Below are positions 2 through 12,848 of a DNA stretch of 60,695 nt, in pieces. Location: contig JAHBVR010000029.1 in assembly GCA_019637395.1 (NCBI GenBank), positions 1 to 60,695 of the forward strand, given 5' to 3'. The position numbers and the translations under genes are program-made. Positions within the stretch are counted from its first letter, which is position 1, and each line of letters begins with the position of its first letter. Under the pieces are notes generated by a model, which had not been told where the DNA came from, ran no database searches, and saw only the letters and a list, made by a program, of their open reading frames with translations. The stretch comes from Vulcanimicrobiota bacterium (lineage in GTDB: Bacteria > Vulcanimicrobiota > Xenobia > Xenobiales > JADMJV01).

Positions 2-1336
2 TTTAAGGTTCATCTAGAGAATGCGCTGGGGTCCCCCGACGTGACGTTGGACGTCAATGGGGTGGGCGCGAAACCGTTGCGCAAGGAGGATAATGATCCT
101 TTGGATGCGGGGGATTTGCGCGAAGACCAGATCGTCTCGGTTCTTTACGACAGCTCTGGGGGAGGTCGATTCTGTCTGCTGGGGGCCACGGGTTCGGGTT
201 CGCTGAGCGGCACGTTGAATGTCGATCAGGGAGGAACGGGGTCTGACCTGTCCGCCAGTGGCGGGAGCGGCGTGGTTCTGAAGCAGAAGACAGTGGGCGG
301 GAATTTGGTGGCCGAAGCTTTGGTGGCCGCCGATATTCCTGATATCGACATCAGCCAGGTGGAGGGTCTGCAAGAGGAGCTGGATCGCACGGTGCGACTC
401 ATCAGCAGCGCTCCCTCCTACTTGAGCCCCCTTTCGTCTGGTGAGCGCCGAACTCTGATCACGGCTACCAGCAACCATTCGTCCTTGTCCGGTCCCGTCA
501 GCAACCTGTTGAACGGAACGTCCAGCAACGATTTTTACTGGAACAGTGTGGCCATAGCGGGAACCTATGTGCGGTTTGACTTTAAGGCTCCCGTCTTGCT
601 GACCGAGGCCAAATGGCTGCAAAGTACCGCCAGTACTCACGGCAATTGGCAATGGCAAGGGAGCCAGGATGCGAGCACCTGGACCAACATCGGGTCCACC
701 TTTTTGCTAGGAGGGAGTACCAGCCAGACCCTGACGACTTTGTCCGCGAACACTACGGAATACCGCTTTTACCAGCTTGTGGGAGTGTCTGGAACGTGTT
801 CGAGTAGCGCCTACCTCTACGAAGTGCAATTCAAGATCTCGGCAAAGTCTGTTGCAGAAGGGTTGGCCTCGGTTCCGCTCGGTGGTGCCGATGAATTCGC
901 CAGGGGCAACGGGAGTCTCTCGTTCCTGAACGCGGCCGATATGCCGGCCAATCTGCGGCTGATACTTCCCAAAACGGCCTCGCAGACGGTGAATTCCGGC
1001 AATACCGATAAGCTGACCTACAATTTCGCTTCGACCAATGACGGGGCCTTTACGGTTTACTCCAGTGTGCTGACCACGGTAGTGGCTGGCCAGTATCTGT
1101 TCGAGATCCCTTGCTTTGTGTCGGGTGGAACCGATCCATATCACATTTTGATCGCAGTCAATAATACGGTGGTCTACAAAAGCCCGCCGGCGACCACCAT
1201 TGGCCATGCGGTCAAGACGCTCACTTTGGCGGCGGGAAATACCGTGGAGTTTCGACTCAACGCGACCACCGCCAACTGCCTTCTCGATACCACCGATGGC
1301 TATATGAGCACAGCGGTGGTCACTCGTCTCAATTAA
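2..1336 (+). CDS. tail-fibre-like / adhesin-like protein, 5' end beyond window
   Basis: The frame is open to the left edge, so the gene starts outside the window. The first visible residues repeat the last half of the module found three times in the gene at 1593 (FKxxxxNxGxxxLxV, then LxAGDxxxxQIVxVxY, then GGRF), so the two proteins share architecture. A Gly/Ser linker and a short helix (SQVEGLQEELDRTVRL) follow. Next is a discoidin-like (F5/8 type C) beta-sandwich, recognisable by YVRFDF, ASTWTNIG and YRFYQL, and then a C-terminal jelly-roll of C1q type (LTYNFASTNDGAFTV to the stop). Such stacks are typical of phage tail fibres and surface adhesins that bind sugars. I infer receptor binding. 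No signal peptide can be judged because the start is missing. Confidence 0.7.
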   Translation, partial: FKVHLENALGSPDVTLDVNGVGAKPLRKEDNDPLDAGDLREDQIVSVLYDSSGGGRFCLLGATGSGSLSGTLNVDQGGTGSDLSASGGSGVVLKQKTVGGNLVAEALVAADIPDIDISQVEGLQEELDRTVRLISSAPSYLSPLSSGERRTLITATSNHSSLSGPVSNLLNGTSSNDFYWNSVAIAGTYVRFDFKAPVLLTEAKWLQSTASTHGNWQWQGSQDASTWTNIGSTFLLGGSTSQTLTTLSANTTEYRFYQLVGVSGTCSSSAYLYEVQFKISAKSVAEGLASVPLGGADEFARGNGSLSFLNAADMPANLRLILPKTASQTVNSGNTDKLTYNFASTNDGAFTVYSSVLTTVVAGQYLFEIPCFVSGGTDPYHILIAVNNTVVYKSPPATTIGHAVKTLTLAAGNTVEFRLNATTANCLLDTTDGYMSTAVVTRLN

Positions 1337-1533: not shown

Positions 1534-1592
1534 TAAATTTCCAAAAATCAGGGGCTAGCATTGCTATTGCCTCTTTTAGAAAGGTGAAAGAA

Positions 1593-3533
1593 ATGTCCAC
1601 TCCATTAGAGGATGATATGGTCGCTCCGGGCGATCTCATCGAAGCAATCCATATCAGCCAGTTGTTTCCGATTATCGAGGCACTGGAAGAGAATCAAACG
1701 AACTACCGTGAGGATGTCGGCCTGGCCGATGCCTACAAGGTAGATTTTTCGGGCGCGGGTAACGCGAACGAGATCAATGCCTATCAAGCGGGTCAGCAAG
1801 TGGTGTTCAAGGCGGCCCATGCCAATACGGGCGCCTCGACTCTGCAGGTGGCCGGGCCGGCCGGCGATTTGTCCGCCCTACCGCTGACCAAGAACGGCGG
1901 GGAGGACCTCGAGGCCGGCGATATTCAAGCGGGCCAAATGGTGCTGGCCATCTATAACGATGAGGGCTCGGGGCGCTTTGATGCTCTCGGGGTTCTGACC
2001 GGTGGCGACGCCGGCGACGGCAGCGAGTTCTTTCGGGAAGACGATGGAGCCGCCAATGCTTATCAGGTGGATGCCACCGGCATGGGTTCCAATCCTTTCG
2101 TGATCGAGGCCTATGCGCCCGGTCAGTTGGTGGTGTTCAAGGCGGCCCACGCCAATACGGGGGCTTCTACCCTTCAGGTGGTGGCTCCGGGCGGCGCCCT
2201 GTCGGCCAAGGCCCTCACCAAATTCGGCAATACGGTGCTGGAGGCCGGAGATATCCAGGCCAACCAGATCGTGATGGCTGTCTACAACGATACCGGCAGC
2301 GGTCGTTTTGAGATGATGGACGCGCCGCCGACGCTCGAGCCACCGGAGCCACCGGAGTCACCAGAGCCGGAAGATGGCACCGGATTCTATCGAGAGGATG
2401 ATGGATACTCCGATACCTATGAGGTTGACTGTAGCGGATGGGGCTCCAACCCGAACGTGATTTCAGCCTATGAGACGGGACAGTTGATTCTCTTCAGGGC
2501 CGGGTCCAGCAACACAGGCGCGTGCACTTTGGAGGTCTTCGGTCCCGGTGGAGGGTTGGGTTCCAAGGAGCTCACCAAGTTTGGCAGCTCGCCTTTGGAT
2601 GCGGGGGATATCCAGGCCGATCAGATCGTGATGGCTGTCTACAACGATACCGGCGACGGTCGCTTTGAAATGATGGAAGCACGGGCCGCTGGAAGTGGCG
2701 GAGCTGGTGCCTGGCTCTACGGGGACGGGATGGATGGAGATGAGCTCATCGATTCCAACACCGATCTGTGGGAGCACAAGTATTATCGCAATCTCACCAT
2801 CGATCCGGGCGTGTTCGTGTGCACAAACGGTTTCAAAGTTCACGTGAGCGGGACGTTGACCAACAACGGCCTCATTCATAACAACGGTACGGATGGGGAG
2901 GATAGTGTGGGCTCGACTCCAGGCTGGGCCGGACATGGCCGCAACTACGGACAGTTGGCCTGGGAAGGCCACTGGGGCGGAACTGGCAGTCTGCAGGAGG
3001 GCGACACGGTTTACTACGTCGACGAGCAAGCCTATTTTGCCCGGGGGGGTGACGGGGGCGATGGGAGCTACGGTGGTGGCGGCTCGGGGGATGGCGGCAA
3101 TGTTTTCGGGGGGGATCGTTTCTTCATGTCGAGTTCTGCCTTCTTAAGCGGGCTCTACGATGGTGATGCTGCCTGGCATGGGGCCCGCACGATCGGCGGC
3201 GGTATGGGCGGTGGTGGAGGCACCGGAAACGATGATGATGCCGCTGGCGGGTCCGGCGGAGGAAGCGGAGGCATCCTGTGGATTGCCGCTCGTGCCCTGG
3301 CGGGCGACGGTGAGCTTCAGGCCGTTGGCGGAAGTGGCGGCGCAGCTGGTGGAGCGGATGCCGGTGGCGGCGGAGGTGGTGGTGGTGGAATCATCTACTT
3401 GCTGACCGAGGCCACGGAATCTCCGTACAGCTACAACGTCGATGGTGGTATCGGCGGCGCCGGGGGCGGCGGCTCCGGTACCGATGGAGGCGATGGCGAG
3501 ATGGGCCTCTACGTCTTTCGCGGCGGGATGTAA
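1593..3533 (+). CDS. repeat-module fibre protein with glycine-rich C-terminus
   Basis: 646 residues from an ATG preceded by AAAGGTG (an in-frame GTG at 1584 is the alternative). Three copies of a roughly 100-residue module are visible (about 38-140, 147-245 and 265-365). Each has YREDDG, a Val-Asp strand, QxVxFKAAHANTGASTL, LTKxG, LEAGDIQAxQxVxAVYND and SGRFxMM. A Pro/Glu linker separates copies 2 and 3. Residues about 390-470 look like a beta-helix-type start. The last 170 residues are extremely glycine-rich (GGGGG runs), as in the polyglycine-helix receptor-binding domains of some phage adhesins. No signal peptide is seen. The next gene begins two bases after the stop, so expression is coupled to the Fe-S scaffold and radical SAM genes. 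Role inferred: surface fibre or adhesin, and possibly a modification target. Confidence 0.7.
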   Translation: MSTPLEDDMVAPGDLIEAIHISQLFPIIEALEENQTNYREDVGLADAYKVDFSGAGNANEINAYQAGQQVVFKAAHANTGASTLQVAGPAGDLSALPLTKNGGEDLEAGDIQAGQMVLAIYNDEGSGRFDALGVLTGGDAGDGSEFFREDDGAANAYQVDATGMGSNPFVIEAYAPGQLVVFKAAHANTGASTLQVVAPGGALSAKALTKFGNTVLEAGDIQANQIVMAVYNDTGSGRFEMMDAPPTLEPPEPPESPEPEDGTGFYREDDGYSDTYEVDCSGWGSNPNVISAYETGQLILFRAGSSNTGACTLEVFGPGGGLGSKELTKFGSSPLDAGDIQADQIVMAVYNDTGDGRFEMMEARAAGSGGAGAWLYGDGMDGDELIDSNTDLWEHKYYRNLTIDPGVFVCTNGFKVHVSGTLTNNGLIHNNGTDGEDSVGSTPGWAGHGRNYGQLAWEGHWGGTGSLQEGDTVYYVDEQAYFARGGDGGDGSYGGGGSGDGGNVFGGDRFFMSSSAFLSGLYDGDAAWHGARTIGGGMGGGGGTGNDDDAAGGSGGGSGGILWIAARALAGDGELQAVGGSGGAAGGADAGGGGGGGGGIIYLLTEATESPYSYNVDGGIGGAGGGGSGTDGGDGEMGLYVFRGGM

Positions 3534-3535
3534 CC

Positions 3536-3892
3536 GTGTTTTCCCCGCAAACCCGCCGCTATTTTGAGCAGGCCCAGGGATATGGCCAGTTGGACCATCC
3601 CACCCATGAGAGCGTGGTGGGCAAGCGGGAGCACGGCCACTTCTTTCAACTACAGCTAGAAACCGACGCGAACGGCGTCGTGACCAACCTGGCTTTCGAT
3701 TGTCCGCGCTGCGTGCCCGCCATTGCATGTGGAGGCTATCTCTACTTGCGTCTGGTGAGGCGTGGCTCGGACCAGACGATCACGGTGGAGCAGGTCGTCG
3801 ACGCCCTCGGCGGCCTGCCCCCGCAACGTTGCTTCTACGCCTGGATGGCGGTGGAGGCGTTCAACACTTTGAGAGGAGTGGGTGAGCGATGA
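3536..3892 (+). CDS. IscU/NifU-like Fe-S scaffold, degenerate
   Basis: 118 residues from a GTG two bases after the previous stop. It ends in a 4-base overlap (ATGA) with the radical SAM gene. The order of elements follows the IscU/NifU N-terminal fold: a polar start, then HGHFFQLQLETD (the strand that in IscU carries GAPxCGD), then VTNLAFDCPRCVPAIACGG (IscU: FKTYGCGSAIASS), then LPPQRCFYAWMAVEAF (IscU: PPVKxHCSxLAxxAI). Cysteines are at 56, 59, 65 and 99. The first cluster-ligand Cys of IscU is missing and His stands near that place. Known IscU proteins assemble Fe-S clusters on three Cys plus one other ligand. Being translationally coupled to an enzyme that should need several 4Fe-4S clusters, it is probably a dedicated cluster donor or accessory protein. 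Confidence 0.65.
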   Translation: MFSPQTRRYFEQAQGYGQLDHPTHESVVGKREHGHFFQLQLETDANGVVTNLAFDCPRCVPAIACGGYLYLRLVRRGSDQTITVEQVVDALGGLPPQRCFYAWMAVEAFNTLRGVGER

Positions 3893-5064
3893 TTTTATCC
3901 TTGCCGATTCAACAGGAGCCCAAAAGATACGCTCCTGTGCATACTTTGATGCTGTACTTGACGGAAGAATGTAATCTGCGCTGCACTTACTGCTTTGTCA
4001 AAAAGGAACCCAAGTTCATGACCCGGGAGACGGCGTTGCGCACCATCGATTGGCTATTGCAACGCAACATCTCGGGCGGCGAATACGAGCTGCTGGTCAA
4101 TTTCTTCGGCGGGGAGCCCTTCCTGGCGGTGGATTTGATGCAGGAAGTGGTGGACTATGGGCGGCTGGTGCGGCCCAATGTCTACAAGACTTTCAAGTTC
4201 GGGGCCACCACCAACGGCACACTGGCCAACTCGCGGGTGGAAAAGGTGATTCGCGAGGGCGAGCTGGCCTTGATGGTCAGTCTGGACGGCGGGCCCGGAG
4301 CCAGTCGGCTGAGACCGATGGTTTCTGGTCGCGACTCGTATTCGCTGGTGCGCAAGAACCTGCCCAAGCTAGCCGAGTGGGCGCGCTTGTGCACGGCTCG
4401 CGTCACCTTTACTCCGGACAACCTGGAGCTACTCAAGAATGTGCGCGACGTGCTGGACGTGGCGCCGGTAAGGGTGGCGCTCAGTCCGGTGGTGGAGGCG
4501 GATTGGAGCGGCTCGCAGGAGGCGCTGGAGGAGGCGCATCAGGAGCTGGGCGACTGGTTCGCGGCCGAGGTCCGGGCGGGACGGCGGCCCCCTCTGGAGG
4601 TCACCTGGGAGCTTCTCAGGGACTATCGGGAGAGGCTGGTTTGTCAGAGACGTCCGGCCCGGACCTGTCCTGTGGGAGAGGGTCTGATGGCCGTCGACAG
4701 CGCGGGCAACGTGTTGCCCTGCCATCGTTTTCTGCACCGACGCCAGGACTTGCTCGGCGGTGTGGAGGCGGGGGAGTTGCCGGCGGAGCGTTGGCGCTTT
4801 GCGCACCTGACGCGGGCCGAGATTCCCGACTGCCAGGACTGTATCGCTCGCACCGTTTGCGGCGGCGGTTGCCGGGCGGTGGCATTGGATGGCGGCTATG
4901 GGCTGGAGGGCGTTCATCCCAATCACTGCCTGCTGATGCAATCCCAGATGCGCCTGGTGGCGCGACTCTACGAGGAGCTGCGGATGGAAGAGAACTTCTG
5001 TCGGGCGCTGGCTCAGGTCCACTCAGATACCCATTACCAAGAACTCTATCAATTAGGAAGTTAG
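3889..5064 (+). CDS. radical SAM/SPASM peptide-modifying enzyme
   Basis: 391 residues. The N-terminal radical SAM barrel has the CxxxCxxC cluster motif (CNLRCTYC, about residues 28-35), the GGEPF SAM-binding motif (about 73-77) and SLDG. The C-terminal SPASM/twitch region has a further set of Cys: TCPVGEGL, VLPCHRF, DCQDC, CGGGC and NHC, about 260-350. This is the layout of enzymes that bind auxiliary 4Fe-4S clusters and modify peptides or proteins (anSME, PqqE and RiPP-maturase relatives). It sits directly after an IscU-like gene with a 4-base overlap and 13 bases before a Gly/Cys-rich short gene that is the natural substrate candidate; the Gly-rich fibre upstream is a second one. The modification made cannot be told from sequence. 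Confidence 0.88.
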   Translation: MILSLPIQQEPKRYAPVHTLMLYLTEECNLRCTYCFVKKEPKFMTRETALRTIDWLLQRNISGGEYELLVNFFGGEPFLAVDLMQEVVDYGRLVRPNVYKTFKFGATTNGTLANSRVEKVIREGELALMVSLDGGPGASRLRPMVSGRDSYSLVRKNLPKLAEWARLCTARVTFTPDNLELLKNVRDVLDVAPVRVALSPVVEADWSGSQEALEEAHQELGDWFAAEVRAGRRPPLEVTWELLRDYRERLVCQRRPARTCPVGEGLMAVDSAGNVLPCHRFLHRRQDLLGGVEAGELPAERWRFAHLTRAEIPDCQDCIARTVCGGGCRAVALDGGYGLEGVHPNHCLLMQSQMRLVARLYEELRMEENFCRALAQVHSDTHYQELYQLGS

Positions 5065-5077
5065 GAGCACTTTAGCG

Positions 5078-5605
5078 ATGAGACTATGGCCACCCACTTT
5101 TACCAACGGAATTCACAACTCTCTCCATGGCAATGAGATTCCCCATGCGGAAGGGGCCAATTTGAACAAGGCTCTGGCGCTGCTGGAGACCGAGGGAGGC
5201 CTTCTTGGCGGCGGTCCGAGCGCTGATCAGGGCGCCGGCGGCGGCGGCGTGAGCGGCGGCGGCGGCAACGGGGCTCGCGCTCCGGGACCGGCACCGTCAG
5301 GAGGCGGGGGAGCCGGCCCGGGCAGTAGCGGCGGTGTCGATGGTGGCGCGGGAACGCCCGGCGGACGCAGCACCACCGGCACTTGTGGCAAAACGACCGA
5401 TCCGCCTGCACCCGATCCTGAAGATCCGCTGAATCGCGGGGTCTCAGGAGACCGGCTCAATCTCGGCGGCAACGGCGGCACCAACATCCACTATTCGGGC
5501 ACCATGCCGGCGGAGCTTAACCAGACCTGTAACGGTACGGGCAAAGGTACGGATGCCCAAAAGGGCTGCCCGCCCTGCGAAATTATTGGAGGTTTCTTCT
5601 TATGA
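5078..5605 (+). CDS. Gly/Cys-rich small protein, candidate radical SAM substrate
   Basis: 175 residues. The first about 40 residues are not Gly-rich and could act as a leader (NGIHNSLHGNEIPHAEGAN, then LNKALALLETEGG). Residues about 40-100 are almost all Gly, Ala, Ser and Pro. The C-terminal part has ordered-looking stretches and four Cys (STTGTCGKT, LNQTCNGTG, GCPPC) and ends in the hydrophobic tail EIIGGFFL. It starts 13 bases after the radical SAM stop, and its stop overlaps the RHS start (ATGA, 5602-5605), so all three should be co-translated. I know no family for it. It could be a ribosomally made, modified precursor, a structural spacer for the RHS or fibre complex, or a secretion adaptor. 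The leader-like N-terminus and Cys-containing tail favour the first. Confidence 0.6.
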   Translation: MRLWPPTFTNGIHNSLHGNEIPHAEGANLNKALALLETEGGLLGGGPSADQGAGGGGVSGGGGNGARAPGPAPSGGGGAGPGSSGGVDGGAGTPGGRSTTGTCGKTTDPPAPDPEDPLNRGVSGDRLNLGGNGGTNIHYSGTMPAELNQTCNGTGKGTDAQKGCPPCEIIGGFFL

Positions 5606-8600
5606 ATCACATGCTATTCCCCCAACCCATTCGCCTGGATGGCTTTCAAACGATTTTGGGCAGCTGCTCAGACGTGGAAATGCTCCGGGTCAGCATCGGT
5701 AACCTGGTGCGCCGCTACACGGTCGCTCAGGTGGCCAGTGTCGGTCCGGCGCTCAAGTTTGAGCTGACTCACAATGCTCGCGAGAGCTTCTCGGGAACCT
5801 TGGGACCTAGCTGGAGGCACAACTGGATGGCTCATCTGGAGTTCGGCTCTTCGCTGGTGACTTATGAGGACGGCTACGGCAGGCGTCATAACTTCACGGC
5901 ATCCGGCAGCGACTGGGTCTTAAATGAGGGTAACTCGCTGTTTCTGCGCCAAGCTCTGACCGAGGTCTCGGGCCAGTGGCACCTGAAAGGCTTTGCCAAC
6001 GGCGAGGACATGGTCTTTGATTCGGGCGGTAAGCTTTTGCAGGTGGTGGACTCGCACGGGCAGGCGCTGACCTTGCACTACACCAGTTCGCTGCTGACAG
6101 CGGTGGAAGAGCCGACGGGGCGACAGATCACTCTGGCCTATAGCTCCGGTCTGTTGACCAGTATAACCGATCCCCGCGGTCACGTAACCAGCTTTGTCTA
6201 TGGGGCGGACTCCAAGCTGGCTTCGATCATCGGGCCGGAAGGTTGCATGCTTTCCTATGAATACGCCAGCGGTGCGACCAATGGTCGGATCGTGGCGCGG
6301 ACGGATGCGCGAAACAACCGGTATACCTATAGCTACGATGGCAGCGGTCGACTGCTGACAGTGACCAATCCAGCTTCCAAGACGATAAGCTACGCCTATG
6401 GTACCGTGCAGGAGCGCCTGTCTTCGCCTCACTTCTCGGACTTTAAAAATCTGAGTCGAGTGATCTTGACCGATGCCGAGGCGAAAAACTGGGAATATCG
6501 GTTTGATGACGATGGGAATTTGTGGCGAATTCTTGATCCACTGACCCATAATCGGCGATTCTACTGGAGCAACCAGCAGGAGCTGCTGTATGTGGCCGAG
6601 GGCTATGGCGTGAATCAGGCGAATGAACTGGGCCCACAGGATAGTCCCCACAATCGTTTTAACCGATTTATGTATGATGGACTCGGAAATCAGACGGCCC
6701 ATACCGATCCTAACGGTATAATTACGCAGCGCGAGTATGACGCGGAGCACCGTTTGATCACGGTGACTCCCGCGCGAGCCACCAATCAGATCGGAGGCAA
6801 CTGGTTTGACCATTTCGGCAAGGACGGCTTCGTCATGTGCTCGGGCCTGGACGATAGCAGTGACCTGGTGCAGCTGCCTTCCTACATTGATAGCGCCGGC
6901 ATTCTGCCGGGGGAGGAGGCCGATGGCAGCAATGCCTTTGTGCGCTCGCTGCCGAACCTGGAGAGTCATCGCATCGACACGCGCGCGCCCTGGATTCGCT
7001 TGCCGGGCAGTCCGCCCCGCGATACCTATCGGCGTTCGCTGGGCATGTGGAAGACCGAAGAGGAAAGCAAGTCCTTTACCTTCCGTATCCCGGTGCAGGT
7101 GACGGGGGCGTTCAACCTGTCTTTCTACACCCACGCGGCTGACTATCCGTTTGCCAGCGCCAGCACACCGGGCTACGAAAAGACCTATTCCGGCGTTTTC
7201 GGGCGGGACGTAGAAATTTTGGTGACCGACTTCGATCCCCTTACGGGGGAGCCGCGCCGGCAGGTCTTTCGTCAGCCCAACAATGCGGCCGGCTGCTGGA
7301 TTAGCTTCGGCGTCTATGCGGAGGCGGAGAGCTCCATTCGCGTGGTGGTGCGCACCCGCGCCGACATCAGCGAAACCGAATTCCCCTGTATCAACATGAT
7401 CGCTTTTGATCCCATCGAGCAACGCACCACCAACCTGTATTACACGGGAGTAGACCTGACTTCGGTGGTCGATCCGCTCCATCAGGTGACTTCCTTTGAA
7501 TACAACCTGGACGGCACTTTGAAGAAAGTGACGGATGCCAAGAACCGTGATACCGAGTTCTTCTATGAAGATGCGGCTAAGAATCTGACCAGGATTGTGG
7601 ACGCCGCCTCGGGCGAGGTGGTGCTCGGCTACGACGCCAACGGCAACGTGACCCGTTCGGAAGACCAGGATACGCGGGTCAGCACGATGGTTTACGATGC
7701 CAAGAACCGTCTGATTCAGATAACGGATCCGCTGAACCACTCTACTCACTTCCGTTTCGACGGGGCGGGCAATCTGGTGTCGGTGCGGGATGCCAGGGGC
7801 AGGCAGACTTTTCTGGCTTACGACAATCTCAATCGTCTGACGGGCGTTTCCAATGCGGCCGGCCAGGAGACTTTCTTCGCCTACAATGGCAGCGGAAGGC
7901 TGATTAAAGTGACCGATGCCCTGGGGCGCGAGACCGAATTTTCCTACGATGCGGCGGGACGTTTGGTGCAGACCGAAATGGCTGACGGACAAAAGGTTCT
8001 GTATGCCCTGAATGCCGTCAATCGACTGGTTTCCATCACCGGGCCGAATGCGAGTCAGGCCGACTGGGACCAGATCGACCTGACCGGCGCGCTGGATGTT
8101 CTAAATGATGGAAGCGTCGAGGCTCCGGTGATGACCTGGCAGCATACGGATGAGTATGACTACGGAATCAATCCCCTTTATGCCCGCACGAACTTGGAGG
8201 CGCACAGTGGAACCTATAGTCTACCCGTGGTCACGGGCAAAGGCCGATATCTCAATGATATCACCACCTATGCCGGGGGACGCTATGTGGCCAAGGCTTG
8301 GGCCAAGAAGGCAGGGGGCGGAGCTCCGACGGTGGCGGCGAGCATTGCCGCCGAGGTGCGCAACTTCGAGGCCACTTTGGAGACGCAGACGGAACCTGGA
8401 CAGGCTACGGCGGTGGATACCGATTGGACAGAACTGAAGCCTCAGATGGTGCAAATTCCGGGCGACACCCTGGCGGTGCGCACCCAGCCGCCTTTGCGCA
8501 AGCTGAAGTTTCTGGTGGAGAAGACGTCGCCCTCCGACGAGCCCAATACAGCCTATCTGGACGATGCCAGTCTGCATTTGATCAATACCTGCCTGGAATA

Positions 8601-11600
8601 CGATGGGGTGAATCTACGCGAGGTGGGGACCCCCGATGGAGCCCGTTTTCGCCGGGAGTTTGACCGGGTGGGGCGGTTGTGCCGCCTGTCCGACCCGCAA
8701 GGGCGGGTGATTTACCTGAACTACGATAGTCTGGACCGGGTCGTTTCGGTGAGGGACTCGCTGGGACTGACTCTGGCTTACGCGTATGATGAGACCGGGC
8801 AGTTGGTTTCCTTTACCGACGCCAAGAATCAGGTCATGACGTTCGCCTATGACGACTTGGATCGGTTGCTGACCATCACTTATCCCGACAGTAGCACCGA
8901 GGAGTTCGAATATTCGGCGGCCGGTGATCTGCTGAAATATACCGACAATCTGGCTCAGGAGAGGTCTTTTGACTATGACTTCGGGCACCGTTTGACGGGG
9001 GTAACCTATCCGAATTTGGACAGGCTGGTACTGGCCTACGATGAGGTCAATAACCTGGTGTCGCGCACCGAGCGCAACGGCGATGTGGAGAGCTATTCCT
9101 ACGATAAGCTGAATCGGGTTACGCGCTGCAAGTTTACGCCAGACAGCGGTTCTGACTCGAGCGGCTGGGACCTGACTTCCCGTTATGATGAGGTGGGCAA
9201 TCGCACCAGGTTGGCCAACACGGGGGGCGTTCGCTATGACACGGGGGCGCTCTACGGCACGGCTCACTACGGGCAGAATACACCCATCTGGTCGGTGCCC
9301 GAGGAGGGCTTTGATGAGATGAACCGGTTGGTGGAGTTTCAGGATAGCGAGGAAAACAGTACCACTTTCGGCTACGATCTGGAAGGACGGCGCACTTCGG
9401 TCCGCTGCCCCAATGGTACTCTGACGCAAGCCACCTATGATATCGTGGGCAAGCTTTTGCAGCTGCGCACCAGCAAGGAGGAAGAGGAACTGCTGGAGCT
9501 CAACTACGACTACAATCTGGCCGGTGATCGGCTGGCCCAGCAGAGCGAGAAAGCAAGCTGCACTTATCATCTGGACAAGTCCGGGCGATTGGTGGAGGAA
9601 ACCATCAACCGTTGGGTGACCGGCCAGGCCGACCACCTGGCCCAGGGAATCTTGCAGTCTTGCCGGTTGGATTCTGCCAACGCGCGAGTCCAGTTGCTGG
9701 ACCTGGAGGACACCTTCGAGACCCTGAACCTGGACCGCTGGCGCCCGAGCATGGTGGTGGCTCCCGTGGCGTTAGAACCTCGTTTGCTGGGCAACGAGAT
9801 GCGGGTGAACGAAGGCCTTCACATGGTCTATCCGTCTACCTGGTCGGCTTTCCAGTCGGCCTACATTCCGGATGTGGCCTGGTATGGAGCCGGTATGGGA
9901 CCCAAACTTCGCTGTCGCACGGGCCATATGAGCAACGCGACGCAGGAACTGGTGTTGCGTCGCCCCCTGGTCGGGGATTTCGACTTGGTGCTGGAATGGG
10001 ATGGATTTGAATATCCCGAGGGGATCTTGACAGACCCCATGAAAGAGGAATATCCGGAATACCAGTATCTCGGCGCCTTCTTGGAGAATACAGCCGGCCA
10101 GATGATTCACCTCCAGCGCCGTTTCTATTGGGCATACAGCACCAACAATTACTATAATTGGAATGACCTGGGAGCATCCGGTTCGCCGCCTGCCTCAGGC
10201 TCAGGCGGGAAGTTTCGCCTGGCCCGCGTCGGCTCGACGGTGAAACTCTATTTCTGGGACGAGGGGGAGGGGGATTGGGAAATGTGCGGTACCGGCCGGG
10301 CATTTCCCGGAGACCTGGTGCTGAAGATTCGGGGATACTGTCAGCTAGGCTGTATGAATTACCGCATCCTCTCCCTGAGCCATCTGGGCGTGAACCCCGT
10401 GCGGTTTCCGCTGGAAGGCAGCTACGAAAGCGTCCTCTATGACGCCGGCCGGACGGTGCAATGGCAGCGCCTGGCCTGGGCGGAGGAGCTGGAGACGGCC
10501 ACCGACGTGAAATTCCAACTGGCCTTTTCCGAGAACCCGGCCGGACCTTGGGCTTATATCGGTCCGGACGGCACGGCCGGGACCTTCTTCAGTTCGCCGG
10601 CGGGAGAGGTCCTGGATGAGACCCCGGATTTCGCGGGCCGCTACGCCCGCTTCAAGGCGCTTTTGAGCAGCGACGGCCTGGCTACGCCCAAATTCGGTGA
10701 GGTTCATCTCTCGTTTTGGAAGGCAGGAATGTTGGCCAGCGAGGTGCGAAATTACCGGTATGACGAAGCCGGGAACATCGAGAGGGTGACCACCGTGACC
10801 GACGCCGGTTCGACGACGGACGAGCGGACCTACAACGACCTGAACCAGCTCACGGAGCAGGTGGTGGGCGGCGACACCTGGGAATTTTCCTACGATGACA
10901 ATGGAAACATGACCGAGAAGAGCAACGGCATCGAAACCTGGGCCTACGTCTGGAGCGATGAGAACCGCCTGGTTCAGGTGAACGGCACCAGCAGCCTGGC
11001 CGGATTCGGCATGGCCCGCTTCGGAGGCGGCCGCTTTGGCGGCAACCCGGGGAGTGTGACAATCGACTACACCTACGATTCCATGGGCCGCATGCTGACT
11101 CGTAATGATGGTGCCAATTTGACCACTTTTGTTTGGGACCATTGGGACATGATTCGCGAGGTCACTGGTGAGTCTGAGACGGTTTACCACATTCCACAGG
11201 GGCAGATTCTGAGCTTTGTGCGGGATGGGGTAACTTACCAGGCGCATAGCGACGCCCTGGGCAGCATTCGTATGATTACGGATGAGGCTGGGGAAGTGGT
11301 GGCCAGATACGAGTATTCTGGATTCGGGGAAGCCATTTCGGTGACCGAAGATTCAGCGCTCATTGACTTCCCGATGCGGTTTGTCGGGAGTCTCGGTGTG
11401 AGGTTTGACGAGCTGAGCGGCCTAATTTATATGCGTCAACGTTGGTATGATAAGGGGCTAGCGCGATTCTTGTCCAAAGACCCTATCGGATTGCAGGGTT
11501 CGTTTAACTTGTATGCGTACGCAGAGAATGACCCGGCCAGCATTTCTGACCCGTCCGGGCTGCGGCCTCCAGATTTAGGCCTAATGAGGTCTAAACCTCG

Positions 11601-12210
11601 GAGTTTGACAGCAGCGGAGGCAACTGAGCTCTTGAGCATGTTTAAAAGAATTGGGTGTGCCATGCAAATTCCTCCGGAAATGCTGATGGCAATATGGAGG
11701 ACGGAAGGACAGCACTTTATGGATGACGGACTGCCGCCCAATGGTTGGACCTCAAGGGAACTTATGAAGTGGGGGGCTAATATAGCTTTCTCTGATGGCG
11801 CAAGTATCGGTTTCATGGGCGTTTCCCCTACAACAGCTGCTTACTTAGACGGTCAGCTTTCCATACCAGCCGGAAAAAGCTGGCCAGACTTCACTAGTTC
11901 TGAGCGGCGGTCTATGTTCAAGGCGCAACTTACCCCTGCGCAACGAGTCGACACTATCAGTAACTTGGAAAACCCATTTATAAGCACACTCTATGCCGCG
12001 AAGAACATCAACTACCTCAAGGATCAGTTGTTTCCAGGGAAGACAAAAGCGCAGATGACTGACGATGACTGGGGAACTATTGGCGACTGGTATAACATGG
12101 GGGCTAGCGCCCCAGCGCCAGGAAAGCCGCATGGAACAAATGGGTTGAACGTCATCAAATACATGCGTATGGCTCGGCAGAAGAAGCCCGAATATTGCGA
12201 ATGCCGCTAG
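5602..12210 (+). CDS. RHS-repeat polymorphic toxin, lysozyme-like C-terminus
   Basis: 2202 residues, giant RHS/YD-repeat protein. YD repeats (GxxxxxxYDxxGRL type) occupy most of the length and would build a hollow beta shell. Three non-repeat insertions look like carbohydrate-binding or LamG-like beta-sandwiches: about 410-605, 830-995 and 1363-1600. The RHS core ends in FLSKDPIGLQG, NLYAYAENDP and then DPSGL (about 1983-1987), the usual autocleavage boundary. The remaining about 215 residues are a separate domain (see the feature at 11563). No signal peptide and no PAAR domain are seen, so the export route is unknown. It overlaps the Gly/Cys-rich gene by 4 bases and is followed after 35 bases by a membrane-anchored candidate immunity gene. 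RHS proteins of this kind typically deliver toxins between bacteria. Confidence 0.9.
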   Translation: MNHMLFPQPIRLDGFQTILGSCSDVEMLRVSIGNLVRRYTVAQVASVGPALKFELTHNARESFSGTLGPSWRHNWMAHLEFGSSLVTYEDGYGRRHNFTASGSDWVLNEGNSLFLRQALTEVSGQWHLKGFANGEDMVFDSGGKLLQVVDSHGQALTLHYTSSLLTAVEEPTGRQITLAYSSGLLTSITDPRGHVTSFVYGADSKLASIIGPEGCMLSYEYASGATNGRIVARTDARNNRYTYSYDGSGRLLTVTNPASKTISYAYGTVQERLSSPHFSDFKNLSRVILTDAEAKNWEYRFDDDGNLWRILDPLTHNRRFYWSNQQELLYVAEGYGVNQANELGPQDSPHNRFNRFMYDGLGNQTAHTDPNGIITQREYDAEHRLITVTPARATNQIGGNWFDHFGKDGFVMCSGLDDSSDLVQLPSYIDSAGILPGEEADGSNAFVRSLPNLESHRIDTRAPWIRLPGSPPRDTYRRSLGMWKTEEESKSFTFRIPVQVTGAFNLSFYTHAADYPFASASTPGYEKTYSGVFGRDVEILVTDFDPLTGEPRRQVFRQPNNAAGCWISFGVYAEAESSIRVVVRTRADISETEFPCINMIAFDPIEQRTTNLYYTGVDLTSVVDPLHQVTSFEYNLDGTLKKVTDAKNRDTEFFYEDAAKNLTRIVDAASGEVVLGYDANGNVTRSEDQDTRVSTMVYDAKNRLIQITDPLNHSTHFRFDGAGNLVSVRDARGRQTFLAYDNLNRLTGVSNAAGQETFFAYNGSGRLIKVTDALGRETEFSYDAAGRLVQTEMADGQKVLYALNAVNRLVSITGPNASQADWDQIDLTGALDVLNDGSVEAPVMTWQHTDEYDYGINPLYARTNLEAHSGTYSLPVVTGKGRYLNDITTYAGGRYVAKAWAKKAGGGAPTVAASIAAEVRNFEATLETQTEPGQATAVDTDWTELKPQMVQIPGDTLAVRTQPPLRKLKFLVEKTSPSDEPNTAYLDDASLHLINTCLEYDGVNLREVGTPDGARFRREFDRVGRLCRLSDPQGRVIYLNYDSLDRVVSVRDSLGLTLAYAYDETGQLVSFTDAKNQVMTFAYDDLDRLLTITYPDSSTEEFEYSAAGDLLKYTDNLAQERSFDYDFGHRLTGVTYPNLDRLVLAYDEVNNLVSRTERNGDVESYSYDKLNRVTRCKFTPDSGSDSSGWDLTSRYDEVGNRTRLANTGGVRYDTGALYGTAHYGQNTPIWSVPEEGFDEMNRLVEFQDSEENSTTFGYDLEGRRTSVRCPNGTLTQATYDIVGKLLQLRTSKEEEELLELNYDYNLAGDRLAQQSEKASCTYHLDKSGRLVEETINRWVTGQADHLAQGILQSCRLDSANARVQLLDLEDTFETLNLDRWRPSMVVAPVALEPRLLGNEMRVNEGLHMVYPSTWSAFQSAYIPDVAWYGAGMGPKLRCRTGHMSNATQELVLRRPLVGDFDLVLEWDGFEYPEGILTDPMKEEYPEYQYLGAFLENTAGQMIHLQRRFYWAYSTNNYYNWNDLGASGSPPASGSGGKFRLARVGSTVKLYFWDEGEGDWEMCGTGRAFPGDLVLKIRGYCQLGCMNYRILSLSHLGVNPVRFPLEGSYESVLYDAGRTVQWQRLAWAEELETATDVKFQLAFSENPAGPWAYIGPDGTAGTFFSSPAGEVLDETPDFAGRYARFKALLSSDGLATPKFGEVHLSFWKAGMLASEVRNYRYDEAGNIERVTTVTDAGSTTDERTYNDLNQLTEQVVGGDTWEFSYDDNGNMTEKSNGIETWAYVWSDENRLVQVNGTSSLAGFGMARFGGGRFGGNPGSVTIDYTYDSMGRMLTRNDGANLTTFVWDHWDMIREVTGESETVYHIPQGQILSFVRDGVTYQAHSDALGSIRMITDEAGEVVARYEYSGFGEAISVTEDSALIDFPMRFVGSLGVRFDELSGLIYMRQRWYDKGLARFLSKDPIGLQGSFNLYAYAENDPASISDPSGLRPPDLGLMRSKPRSLTAAEATELLSMFKRIGCAMQIPPEMLMAIWRTEGQHFMDDGLPPNGWTSRELMKWGANIAFSDGASIGFMGVSPTTAAYLDGQLSIPAGKSWPDFTSSERRSMFKAQLTPAQRVDTISNLENPFISTLYAAKNINYLKDQLFPGKTKAQMTDDDWGTIGDWYNMGASAPAPGKPHGTNGLNVIKYMRMARQKKPEYCECR
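11563..12207 (+). other. RHS toxin tip: lysozyme/SLT-like domain
   Basis: This is the segment of the RHS protein after DPSGL. Its pattern follows lytic transglycosylases and lysozyme-like hydrolases: IPPEMLMAIWRTEG (helix with a candidate catalytic Glu), GASIGFMGVSPTTAAYLDG (equivalent to SxGLMQxxPxTA), ENPFISTLYAAKNINYL (equivalent to dPxxNixxGaxYL), and WGTIGDWYNMGAS (equivalent to AxAAYNxG). Peptidoglycan would be the substrate in a target cell's periplasm. Codon use is visibly less GC-rich than in the RHS core upstream, as is usual for exchangeable toxin tips. The fold assignment is mine from motif order only. Confidence 0.6.
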
Positions 12211-12245: not shown

Positions 12246-12848
12246 ATGAAACCACGACCGCTGGTATGGGTTTCGCTTCTCACGATATTGCTGGCAAGCG
12301 TGGGGATTTGGTGGTTAAAGGGAGATCCGAAGCAACCTGTTTATGACTGGCGAGAAGTCACGGTCGCTGGTGTTCGAGCAGGATCAAGTCCCAGCCAAGT
12401 AGAGAAGCTGATGGGCAAACCTCTGGAGCGGAAGGGAAAAGAAGGGTCGGTCCAGGTGCGTTACAAGGAATGCTGGCTGAGCATCTCCGACGGTCTCATT
12501 ACGGTAACCGGGAATCAGATTGAACGCCACGGTCACACCATCTTGAAAATACAGAACACCTTCGAGCTGGTTGGTGTCAGGGAGCCAACATCTCTTGATC
12601 ATCCGGTGAACAGAGAAGGGGTCATCGAGTTGTTTGGGGAGCCAGATTCAGACCAACCCAGTTCCGACCGTTCTAGAGGGGATGGTGACAGAGAAATGTC
12701 TTATGGGTCTAAGGCAACGGTTGATTCTTTCAGCTCTCAACCAGAACCCCCTCACGAGCTTATTGTTTCTCTGGACGGCAGCGGACTGGTTGAGAGTTTC
12801 TCTGTTAGGTGGAAGCTACCGCCACCACAAAGTCCATCAACCTCGTAG
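12246..12848 (+). CDS. membrane-anchored candidate immunity protein
   Basis: 200 residues from an ATG preceded by GGAGG (TGGAGGCC). An N-terminal hydrophobic segment (VSLLTILLASVGIWWL) is an uncleaved anchor or signal, putting the rest outside the cytoplasm. The body has two motifs of the kind seen in SmpA/BamE-like small domains: VRAGSSPSQVEKLMGKP and, later, REGVIELFGEP. The C-terminal third is Ser/Pro-rich and probably disordered. It lies 35 bases after the RHS toxin and has the same lower-GC composition as the toxin tip. A peptidoglycan-attacking toxin would need an immunity protein in the periplasm, which fits. Immunity is inferred from position and topology. No immunity family is recognised. 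Confidence 0.55.
   Translation: MKPRPLVWVSLLTILLASVGIWWLKGDPKQPVYDWREVTVAGVRAGSSPSQVEKLMGKPLERKGKEGSVQVRYKECWLSISDGLITVTGNQIERHGHTILKIQNTFELVGVREPTSLDHPVNREGVIELFGEPDSDQPSSDRSRGDGDREMSYGSKATVDSFSSQPEPPHELIVSLDGSGLVESFSVRWKLPPPQSPSTS

What the first reader, a model, noticed from the sequence alone, without database searches (positions are those of the whole stretch)
5078..5605. Possible new modified-peptide precursor
A 175-residue protein with a non-Gly leader of about 40 residues, a Gly/Pro/Ser core and a Cys-rich end with GCPPC and a hydrophobic tail. Its size and place match substrates of SPASM enzymes, yet it is longer than most known precursors and is co-translated with a toxin.
Basis: inference. 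Interest (0 to 1): 0.6.

Follow-up and report, generated by a model that had tools for sequence, protein, structure and literature searches.

The report
Enzyme-paired glycine-rich partner of RHS toxin
A small glycine-rich protein gene sits between a peptide-stapling radical enzyme and a large toxin-like RHS gene and always travels with both, suggesting a chemically modified toxin partner rather than an ordinary secreted peptide.

Summary
The ORF at 5078-5605 is real and selected (dN/dS 0.37 against its closest orthologue). It follows a complete radical SAM/SPASM gene (3889-5064) and overlaps the start of an RHS gene (5602-12210) by 4 bases. Six cassettes with this order were found: three in the window's genome, three elsewhere. 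A profile of the ORF family finds five places in 28 genomes, each directly downstream of one of the five enzyme copies found in 149 genomes of the phylum. Enzyme, ORF and RHS N-terminus diverge in step; the upstream NifU-like protein does not. The classical peptide-natural-product reading is weaker: the leader is less conserved than the Gly core, the enzyme has no room for an RRE, and GCPPC and the hydrophobic tail are not conserved. Best reading: a modified protein subunit working with an RHS toxin, QhpD/QhpC being the closest analogue. The bond, its sites and the function are inferred. An alternative substrate, an invariant Cys at the RHS N-terminus, is not excluded.

The parts
5078..5605 (+). 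Gly-rich, Cys-containing 175-aa protein: proposed substrate of the SPASM enzyme
   Evidence: no family in Pfam, NCBIfam (only a chance-level hit), PHROGs or PADLOC
5078..5197 (+). N-terminal leader-like part, residues 1-40, moderately conserved
5198..5371 (+). Gly-rich core, residues 41-98, the most conserved part
5372..5602 (+). variable C-terminal part with Cys103, Cys151, Cys167 (conserved in window, G002 and L025) and Cys164 (not conserved)
5588..5592 (+). GGAGG, likely Shine-Dalgarno of the RHS gene, inside the codons of the hydrophobic tail
   Evidence: sequence; ends compared
3889..5064 (+). radical SAM/SPASM enzyme, 391 aa, CX3CX2C and seven SPASM cysteines invariant in five copies, no N-terminal RRE
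3536..3892 (+). NifU/IscU-like 118-aa protein, overlaps the enzyme gene; belongs to the upstream exchangeable module
5602..12210 (+). RHS/YD-repeat protein, 2202 aa, with Rhs-associated core and a C-terminus that varies between cassettes
11563..12207 (+). C-terminal region of the RHS protein after the core, presumed toxin domain; no family found
12246..12848 (+). 200-aa protein with N-terminal membrane-like segment, possible immunity protein (position only; BamE match below cut-off)
1584..3533 (+). phage-fibre-like Gly-rich protein
   Evidence: weak or unnamed tail families
41..1336 (+). fibre-like protein, possibly incomplete at the contig start; F5/8 type C-like stretch below cut-off

Best explanation
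The ORF encodes a dedicated substrate of the radical SAM/SPASM enzyme next to it. The enzyme most likely installs one or a few cross-links from its cysteines (thioether chemistry is the best guess from the enzyme's relatives) onto an otherwise unstructured Gly-rich protein. The product is not a free peptide antibiotic but a protein partner of the RHS toxin encoded immediately downstream, used in its assembly, capping or delivery within a phage-fibre-derived cassette. Shown: gene order, co-occurrence, co-divergence, selection on the ORF, intact enzyme motifs. Inferred: that the ORF is the substrate, the bond, its sites, the role with RHS, and that RHS is a toxin.
For: Six of six cassettes have the order enzyme - Gly-rich Cys protein - RHS. 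The profile of the ORF family finds 5 places in 28 genomes, all behind the enzyme copies, and the enzyme profile finds 5 copies in 149 genomes. Two NifU-like/fibre cassettes without the enzyme also lack the ORF (L140, L161). Pairwise identities correlate: enzyme-ORF rho 0.75, enzyme-RHS 0.87, ORF-RHS 0.65, NifU-like with any -0.10 to -0.18 (15 and 10 pairs, not independent). The best NCBIfam relatives are maturases of Cys-containing peptides or proteins (PapB, Nif11, SCIFF, QhpD). The ORF is predicted unstructured (pLDDT 37). Precedent: QhpD puts three Cys-to-Asp/Glu thioethers into QhpC, a protein of about 14.9 kDa (tagged, leader included) with a 28-residue leader that becomes a subunit of a larger enzyme (PMC7876137, passages), and qhpC directly follows the QhpD gene.
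Against: The leader is less conserved than the core. There is no RRE: models with an N-terminal region of 70-90 residues align only from about position 73-91 on. No acceptor residue is conserved next to the cysteines, and the CX3D motif of PapB is not conserved. Cys positions differ between the window group and the C5/C32 group. Six cassettes from few lineages are not six independent cases. The RHS N-terminus carries its own invariant Cys.
Confidence: 0.5

Rival explanations
1. A conventional leader-core RiPP: the product is trimmed after the Gly-Gly region near residue 40, exported and acts as a bacteriocin-like peptide, with the RHS gene a separate weapon in the same operon.
For: SPASM enzyme of peptide-maturase kin; Gly-Gly at the leader-core border in window, G002, C5 and C32; the genome has two Peptidase_C39 matches elsewhere.
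Against: No protease, exporter, RRE or immunity gene of a RiPP cluster recognised in the cassettes; leader less conserved than core; strict linkage to RHS; the C39 matches lie on another contig and about 11 kb from the C32 enzyme.
Confidence: 0.2
2. The enzyme's substrate is the RHS protein itself: Cys22 in its N-terminal tail (DGYQT-like motif, then Cys, with CX3E in five of six) is modified, and the Gly-rich protein is a structural or chaperone partner.
For: Cys22 is invariant in six of six and CX3E present in five of six, the spacing PapB uses (Cys-X3-Asp/Glu; PMC9413430 passages); enzyme and RHS N-terminus co-diverge most closely (rho 0.87); this RHS N-terminus was found only in enzyme-bearing cassettes, apart from one weaker match (G018) that does not cover residues 1-25.
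Against: Two other RHS cysteines (215, 413) are invariant too, so Cys22 is not unusual; the Gly-rich ORF sits between the two genes and is equally strictly linked.
Confidence: 0.15
3. The Gly-rich protein is an unmodified flexible spacer, fibre-tip or export factor for RHS, and the SPASM enzyme acts on something else, such as the fibre protein.
For: Low complexity, predicted disorder, Gly core under the strongest constraint.
Against: Fibre and NifU-like genes occur without the enzyme and the NifU-like protein does not co-diverge with it; at least three Cys are kept in all six Gly-rich proteins.
Confidence: 0.15

Closest known systems
QhpD/QhpC (quinohemoprotein amine dehydrogenase maturation)
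   Same: SPASM enzyme gene directly before a small Cys-containing, mostly coil protein with an N-terminal leader, then a large partner gene; enzyme similarity 141 bits to TIGR03906
   Different: below the 453-bit cut-off; no amine dehydrogenase genes; substrate is Gly-rich without fixed Asp/Glu acceptors; enzyme lacks the N-terminal region
PapB/PapA ranthipeptide system
   Same: best-scoring NCBIfam model, 217.7 bits
   Different: below the 340-bit cut-off; no repeated CX3D motifs; no RRE; RHS-linked
Nif11-like peptide maturase systems
   Same: second-best model, 179.8 bits
   Different: below the 518.7-bit cut-off; no Nif11 leader in the ORF
CXXX-repeat SPASM systems (TIGR04115) and phage tail-module SPASM enzymes beside Cys-repeat proteins
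   Same: SPASM gene beside a low-complexity Cys protein near tail-fibre and lysis genes
   Different: many Cys repeats instead of 3-4 Cys; enzymes form separate clades
RHS polymorphic toxins; type 10 secretion (holin/endolysin release of Tc toxin)
   Same: RHS body with variable C-terminus; orthologous cassettes start with a small membrane protein and an M15 endolysin-like gene
   Different: a SPASM enzyme and Gly-rich protein are added; the small membrane protein has no holin match and no spanins were recognised

Membership tests
Radical SAM/SPASM enzyme | CX3CX2C plus SPASM cysteines and domain score | tested here: met
   TIGR04085 42.9 bits over cut-off 27; ten cysteines invariant
PapB ranthipeptide family | enzyme over the NF047865 cut-off (340 bits) | tested here: not met
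   217.7 bits; L025 220.5
PapB ranthipeptide family | CX3D/E motifs in the precursor | tested here: not met
   no conserved acceptor; only the non-conserved C164-X3-E168 in the window
Nif11-type RiPP | Nif11 leader domain and enzyme over cut-off | tested here: not met
   no Pfam/NCBIfam leader match; 179.8 of 518.7 bits
SCIFF | six Cys in a short peptide and enzyme over cut-off | tested here: not met
   3-4 Cys in 149-201 aa; 161.7 of 425 bits
RiPP precursor in general | leader more conserved than core | tested here: not met
   57/76/43% and 66/87/39% for leader/core/tail
RiPP precursor in general | RRE in the enzyme or beside it | tested here: not met
   enzyme begins about 17 residues before the radical SAM domain and no PqqD-like gene was recognised in the cassettes; no dedicated RRE search was available
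RiPP precursor in general | modified in the cell | not testable with these tools
   needs mass spectrometry
QhpC-like SPASM substrate protein | enzyme over TIGR03906 cut-off, dehydrogenase partners | tested here: not met
   141.3 of 453 bits; no such genes recognised nearby
RHS/YD-repeat protein | RHS repeats and Rhs-associated core | tested here: met
   PF05593 340.7 bits, TIGR03696 69.2 bits over 32.5
NifU/IscU scaffold | NifU_N fold match and three ligand cysteines (ligand positions recalled) | tested here: inconclusive
   PF01592 26.4 bits over 22; PDB IscU E 1.4e-13; first IscU cysteine replaced, second and third kept, extra Cys present

The most novel reading that the evidence does not exclude
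A radical SAM/SPASM enzyme chemically staples a Gly-rich protein that is a working part of a phage-fibre-derived RHS toxin machine. With the phage tail-module SPASM/Cys-repeat pairs, it would belong to a wider practice: radical-made cross-links in tail- and toxin-linked structural proteins rather than in small peptide natural products.
Probability: 0.3. Interest if true: 0.8.

Novelty: new variant of a known kind. Interest (0 to 1): 0.55.

Why it matters
SPASM enzymes are known mainly from peptide natural products and a few enzyme subunits (own knowledge; QhpC). One inherited as a unit with an RHS toxin and a Gly-rich partner would extend radical-based protein stapling to toxin delivery, and gives a compact three-gene system in which substrate, bond and role can be tested directly. 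The paper searches found no report of SPASM enzymes paired with RHS toxins (open-licence PubMed Central papers only).

Tried and rejected
Homologues beyond Eremiobacterota: the genome-contig scan gave 14 loci, of which only 3 (G002's record, L025 and CPR1's record) carry this clade of enzyme. The viral scan gave 80 loci at 22-39% best-segment identity; of the 48 viral rows put in the tree none falls in this clade. NifU-like and ORF queries found no relative in viral contigs, the ORF none in phage records, and the RHS N-terminus none in plasmids. The enzyme's relatives in phage records and plasmids are all under 60% identical.

NifU-like protein as a dedicated enzyme partner: rejected, since it also stands in cassettes without the enzyme (L140; more weakly L161, 20.5 bits) and does not co-diverge. 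In C5/C32 it is 98% identical with dS 0.10 against 1.44 for the enzyme, which suggests recombination there.

Toxin identity: no informative Pfam, NCBIfam or PDB match; the AlphaFold model is poor (pLDDT 45.6) and was not searched. A lysozyme-like motif was suspected from memory only. Structure of the ORF: no confident residue. One search scanned only + strand ORFs, although some genome-search loci hold the enzyme on the - strand; one search repeated it on the enzyme's strand for 12 genome loci (11 with an enzyme ORF) and none had a Gly- or Cys-rich small neighbour by the stated thresholds. The tree dropped L027 and 13 of 61 viral representatives for length.

Full report
Setting. The window is contig C22 of a 7.66-Mb genome. 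The closest named relative by this locus is a Candidatus Eremiobacterota MAG (JALHOV01; L024 = G002). Around the finding the + strand reads: fibre-like proteins (41-1336, 1584-3533), NifU/IscU-like protein (3536-3892), radical SAM/SPASM enzyme (3889-5064), the finding (5078-5605), RHS protein (5602-12210), and a 200-aa protein (12246-12848). The genes are tightly packed, with overlaps at 3889-3892 and 5602-5605.

The ORF. It is coding: dN/dS against the G002 orthologue is 0.37 over 172 codons, compared with 0.16 for the enzyme, 0.26 for the NifU-like protein and 0.14 for the N-terminal RHS stretch. It has three parts. Residues 1-40 (1-50 in the C5/C32 paralogues) are 57% and 66% identical in the two close pairs; the Gly core is 76% and 87%; the C-terminal part is 43% and 39%. 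Against the more distant L025 the leader is 28-29%, the core 56-60% and the tail 30-37% identical. Cys103, Cys151 and Cys167 are kept in window, G002 and L025; Cys151 and Cys167 align also in CPR1. C5 and C32 keep three Cys elsewhere, the last again near the C-terminus. Cys-Pro near the C-terminus occurs in five of six; the window has Cys-Glu. AlphaFold with four rows gives pLDDT 37 and no structure, which fits a flexible substrate but equally a linker. In 10 stretches 79 ORFs of 100-260 aa were counted and 6 have at least 18% Gly: four are copies of this ORF and two are others (the C5 copy was read there with a longer start and fell outside the size range).

Co-occurrence. The enzyme search of 98 genomes with E up to 1e-30 gave 14 places, 5 of them at 45% identity or more. 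The enzyme profile at E up to 1e-60 found 5 copies in 3 of 149 genomes of the phylum: three in the window's genome (C22, C5, C32), one in G002, one in G006 (CPR1). A sixth, L025, is on a contig labelled Bryobacter sp. MAG; misbinning was not tested. All six have the Gly-rich ORF directly after the enzyme and an RHS gene after that. The ORF profile found exactly the five copies in 28 genomes; recall of these is by construction, absence elsewhere is the information. The RHS N-terminus found the same five plus one weak partial match, G018. Four genomes of the same genus or family, G001 and G003-G005, have no enzyme of this clade, so the cassette is accessory.

Unit of inheritance. Pairwise identities of enzyme, ORF and RHS N-terminus correlate (rho 0.65-0.87, 15 pairs), whereas the NifU-like protein correlates with none (10 pairs; CPR1 left out because its copy is partial). 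The nominal p values ignore non-independence. In C5/C32 the NifU-like gene is nearly identical while its neighbours are not. Two cassettes without the enzyme exist: G002 C430, NifU-like gene then a 1041+ aa protein without Pfam match; and G005 C70, fibre, weakly NifU-like frame, RHS of 1700 aa. Both lack the Gly-rich ORF. I read this as a fibre/NifU-like head with exchangeable payloads, one payload being enzyme + Gly-rich protein + RHS.

The enzyme. The CX3CX2C motif and seven SPASM cysteines are invariant in five copies. NCBIfam ranks PapB, Nif11, SCIFF and QhpD maturases first, all below cut-off. The nearest solved structure by sequence is 5wgg (1.8e-49), named as CteB in PMC7876137. The six enzymes form one clade (100/100) on a long stem whose place among QhpD/NlpM-like and phage enzymes is unresolved (71 rows). 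There is no room for an RRE.

Mechanism. The nearest working precedent is QhpD/QhpC: a SPASM enzyme puts thioethers into a leader-bearing, mostly coil protein that then becomes a subunit of a larger complex (PMC7876137, passages). PapB shows Cys-to-Asp/Glu chemistry with loose spacing (PMC9413430, passages). By analogy the Gly-rich protein is cross-linked at Cys and then serves the RHS protein. The acceptors are not conserved, so the bond type is a guess. A rival is RHS Cys22, invariant in six of six with CX3E in five. RHS C-termini diverge sharply (31% in residues 2001-2200 against about 70% overall, C5/C32), as expected of polymorphic toxins, but no toxin family was recognised.

Release. Orthologous cassettes begin with a small membrane protein and an M15 endolysin-like protein. 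In the window's genome such a pair ends contig C24 just before a fibre start; adjacency to the window is plausible but not shown. Holin/endolysin release is known for Tc toxins (PMC10847048, passages). The small protein has no holin match, so this is a lead only.

Side observation. Of 61 distinct viral SPASM enzymes (from 80 loci), 38 have a Cys-rich protein within 3 kb on the same strand; 47 of 483 near ORFs against 7 of 468 far ORFs are Cys-rich (near Cys-rich ORFs were counted on the + strand only, far ones on both). The neighbours scanned in three of the five inspected loci match tail or endolysin families, and one of the five phage enzymes scanned is a TIGR04115 member (455 bits, cut-off 350). 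This resembles the window's arrangement in neighbourhood, not in sequence.

Literature. Searches for radical SAM with SPASM, Rhs and precursor peptide (0 papers) and with polymorphic toxin/RHS (1 paper, which has no radical SAM hit) found no such pairing; one search read passages of that paper. Phage-tail searches listed papers that looked incidental from titles and abstract starts; none of those was opened.

Noticed in passing
L038, L042, L045, L047, L049, L051-L053, L055, L057, L058, L060, L062 and others (38 of 61 distinct viral loci): Phage SPASM enzymes stand beside Cys-repeat proteins (CxC, CxxC, SCxGxC repeats); in the loci inspected this is within the tail module near fibre and lysis genes.
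   Followed up: partly
L019:12583-12927 and L020:12568-12912: The NifU-like genes of two paralogous cassettes are 98% identical (dS 0.10) while the enzymes beside them have dS 1.44: likely recombination at this gene.
   Followed up: partly
window 3536-3892 and homologues: IscU-like protein with altered Cys set (CPRC...AIAC; first IscU ligand lost) in fibre-RHS cassettes with and without the enzyme; its role is unexplained.
   Followed up: partly
L140:3752-6874: Open-ended 1041+ aa protein without Pfam or NCBIfam match directly after a NifU-like gene, with a low-complexity N-terminus and CGAC.
   Followed up: no
RHS N-terminus, window 5602-5690: N-terminal tail with DGYQT-like motif and invariant Cys22 in all six RHS proteins of these cassettes.
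   Followed up: partly
G000:C24:45625-46877: Membrane-protein/M15 pair and a fibre start at a contig end; may be the missing upstream part of the window's cassette.
   Followed up: partly
G000:C32:95432-95851: Short Peptidase_C39-like frame about 11 kb from the C32 cassette's enzyme.
   Followed up: no
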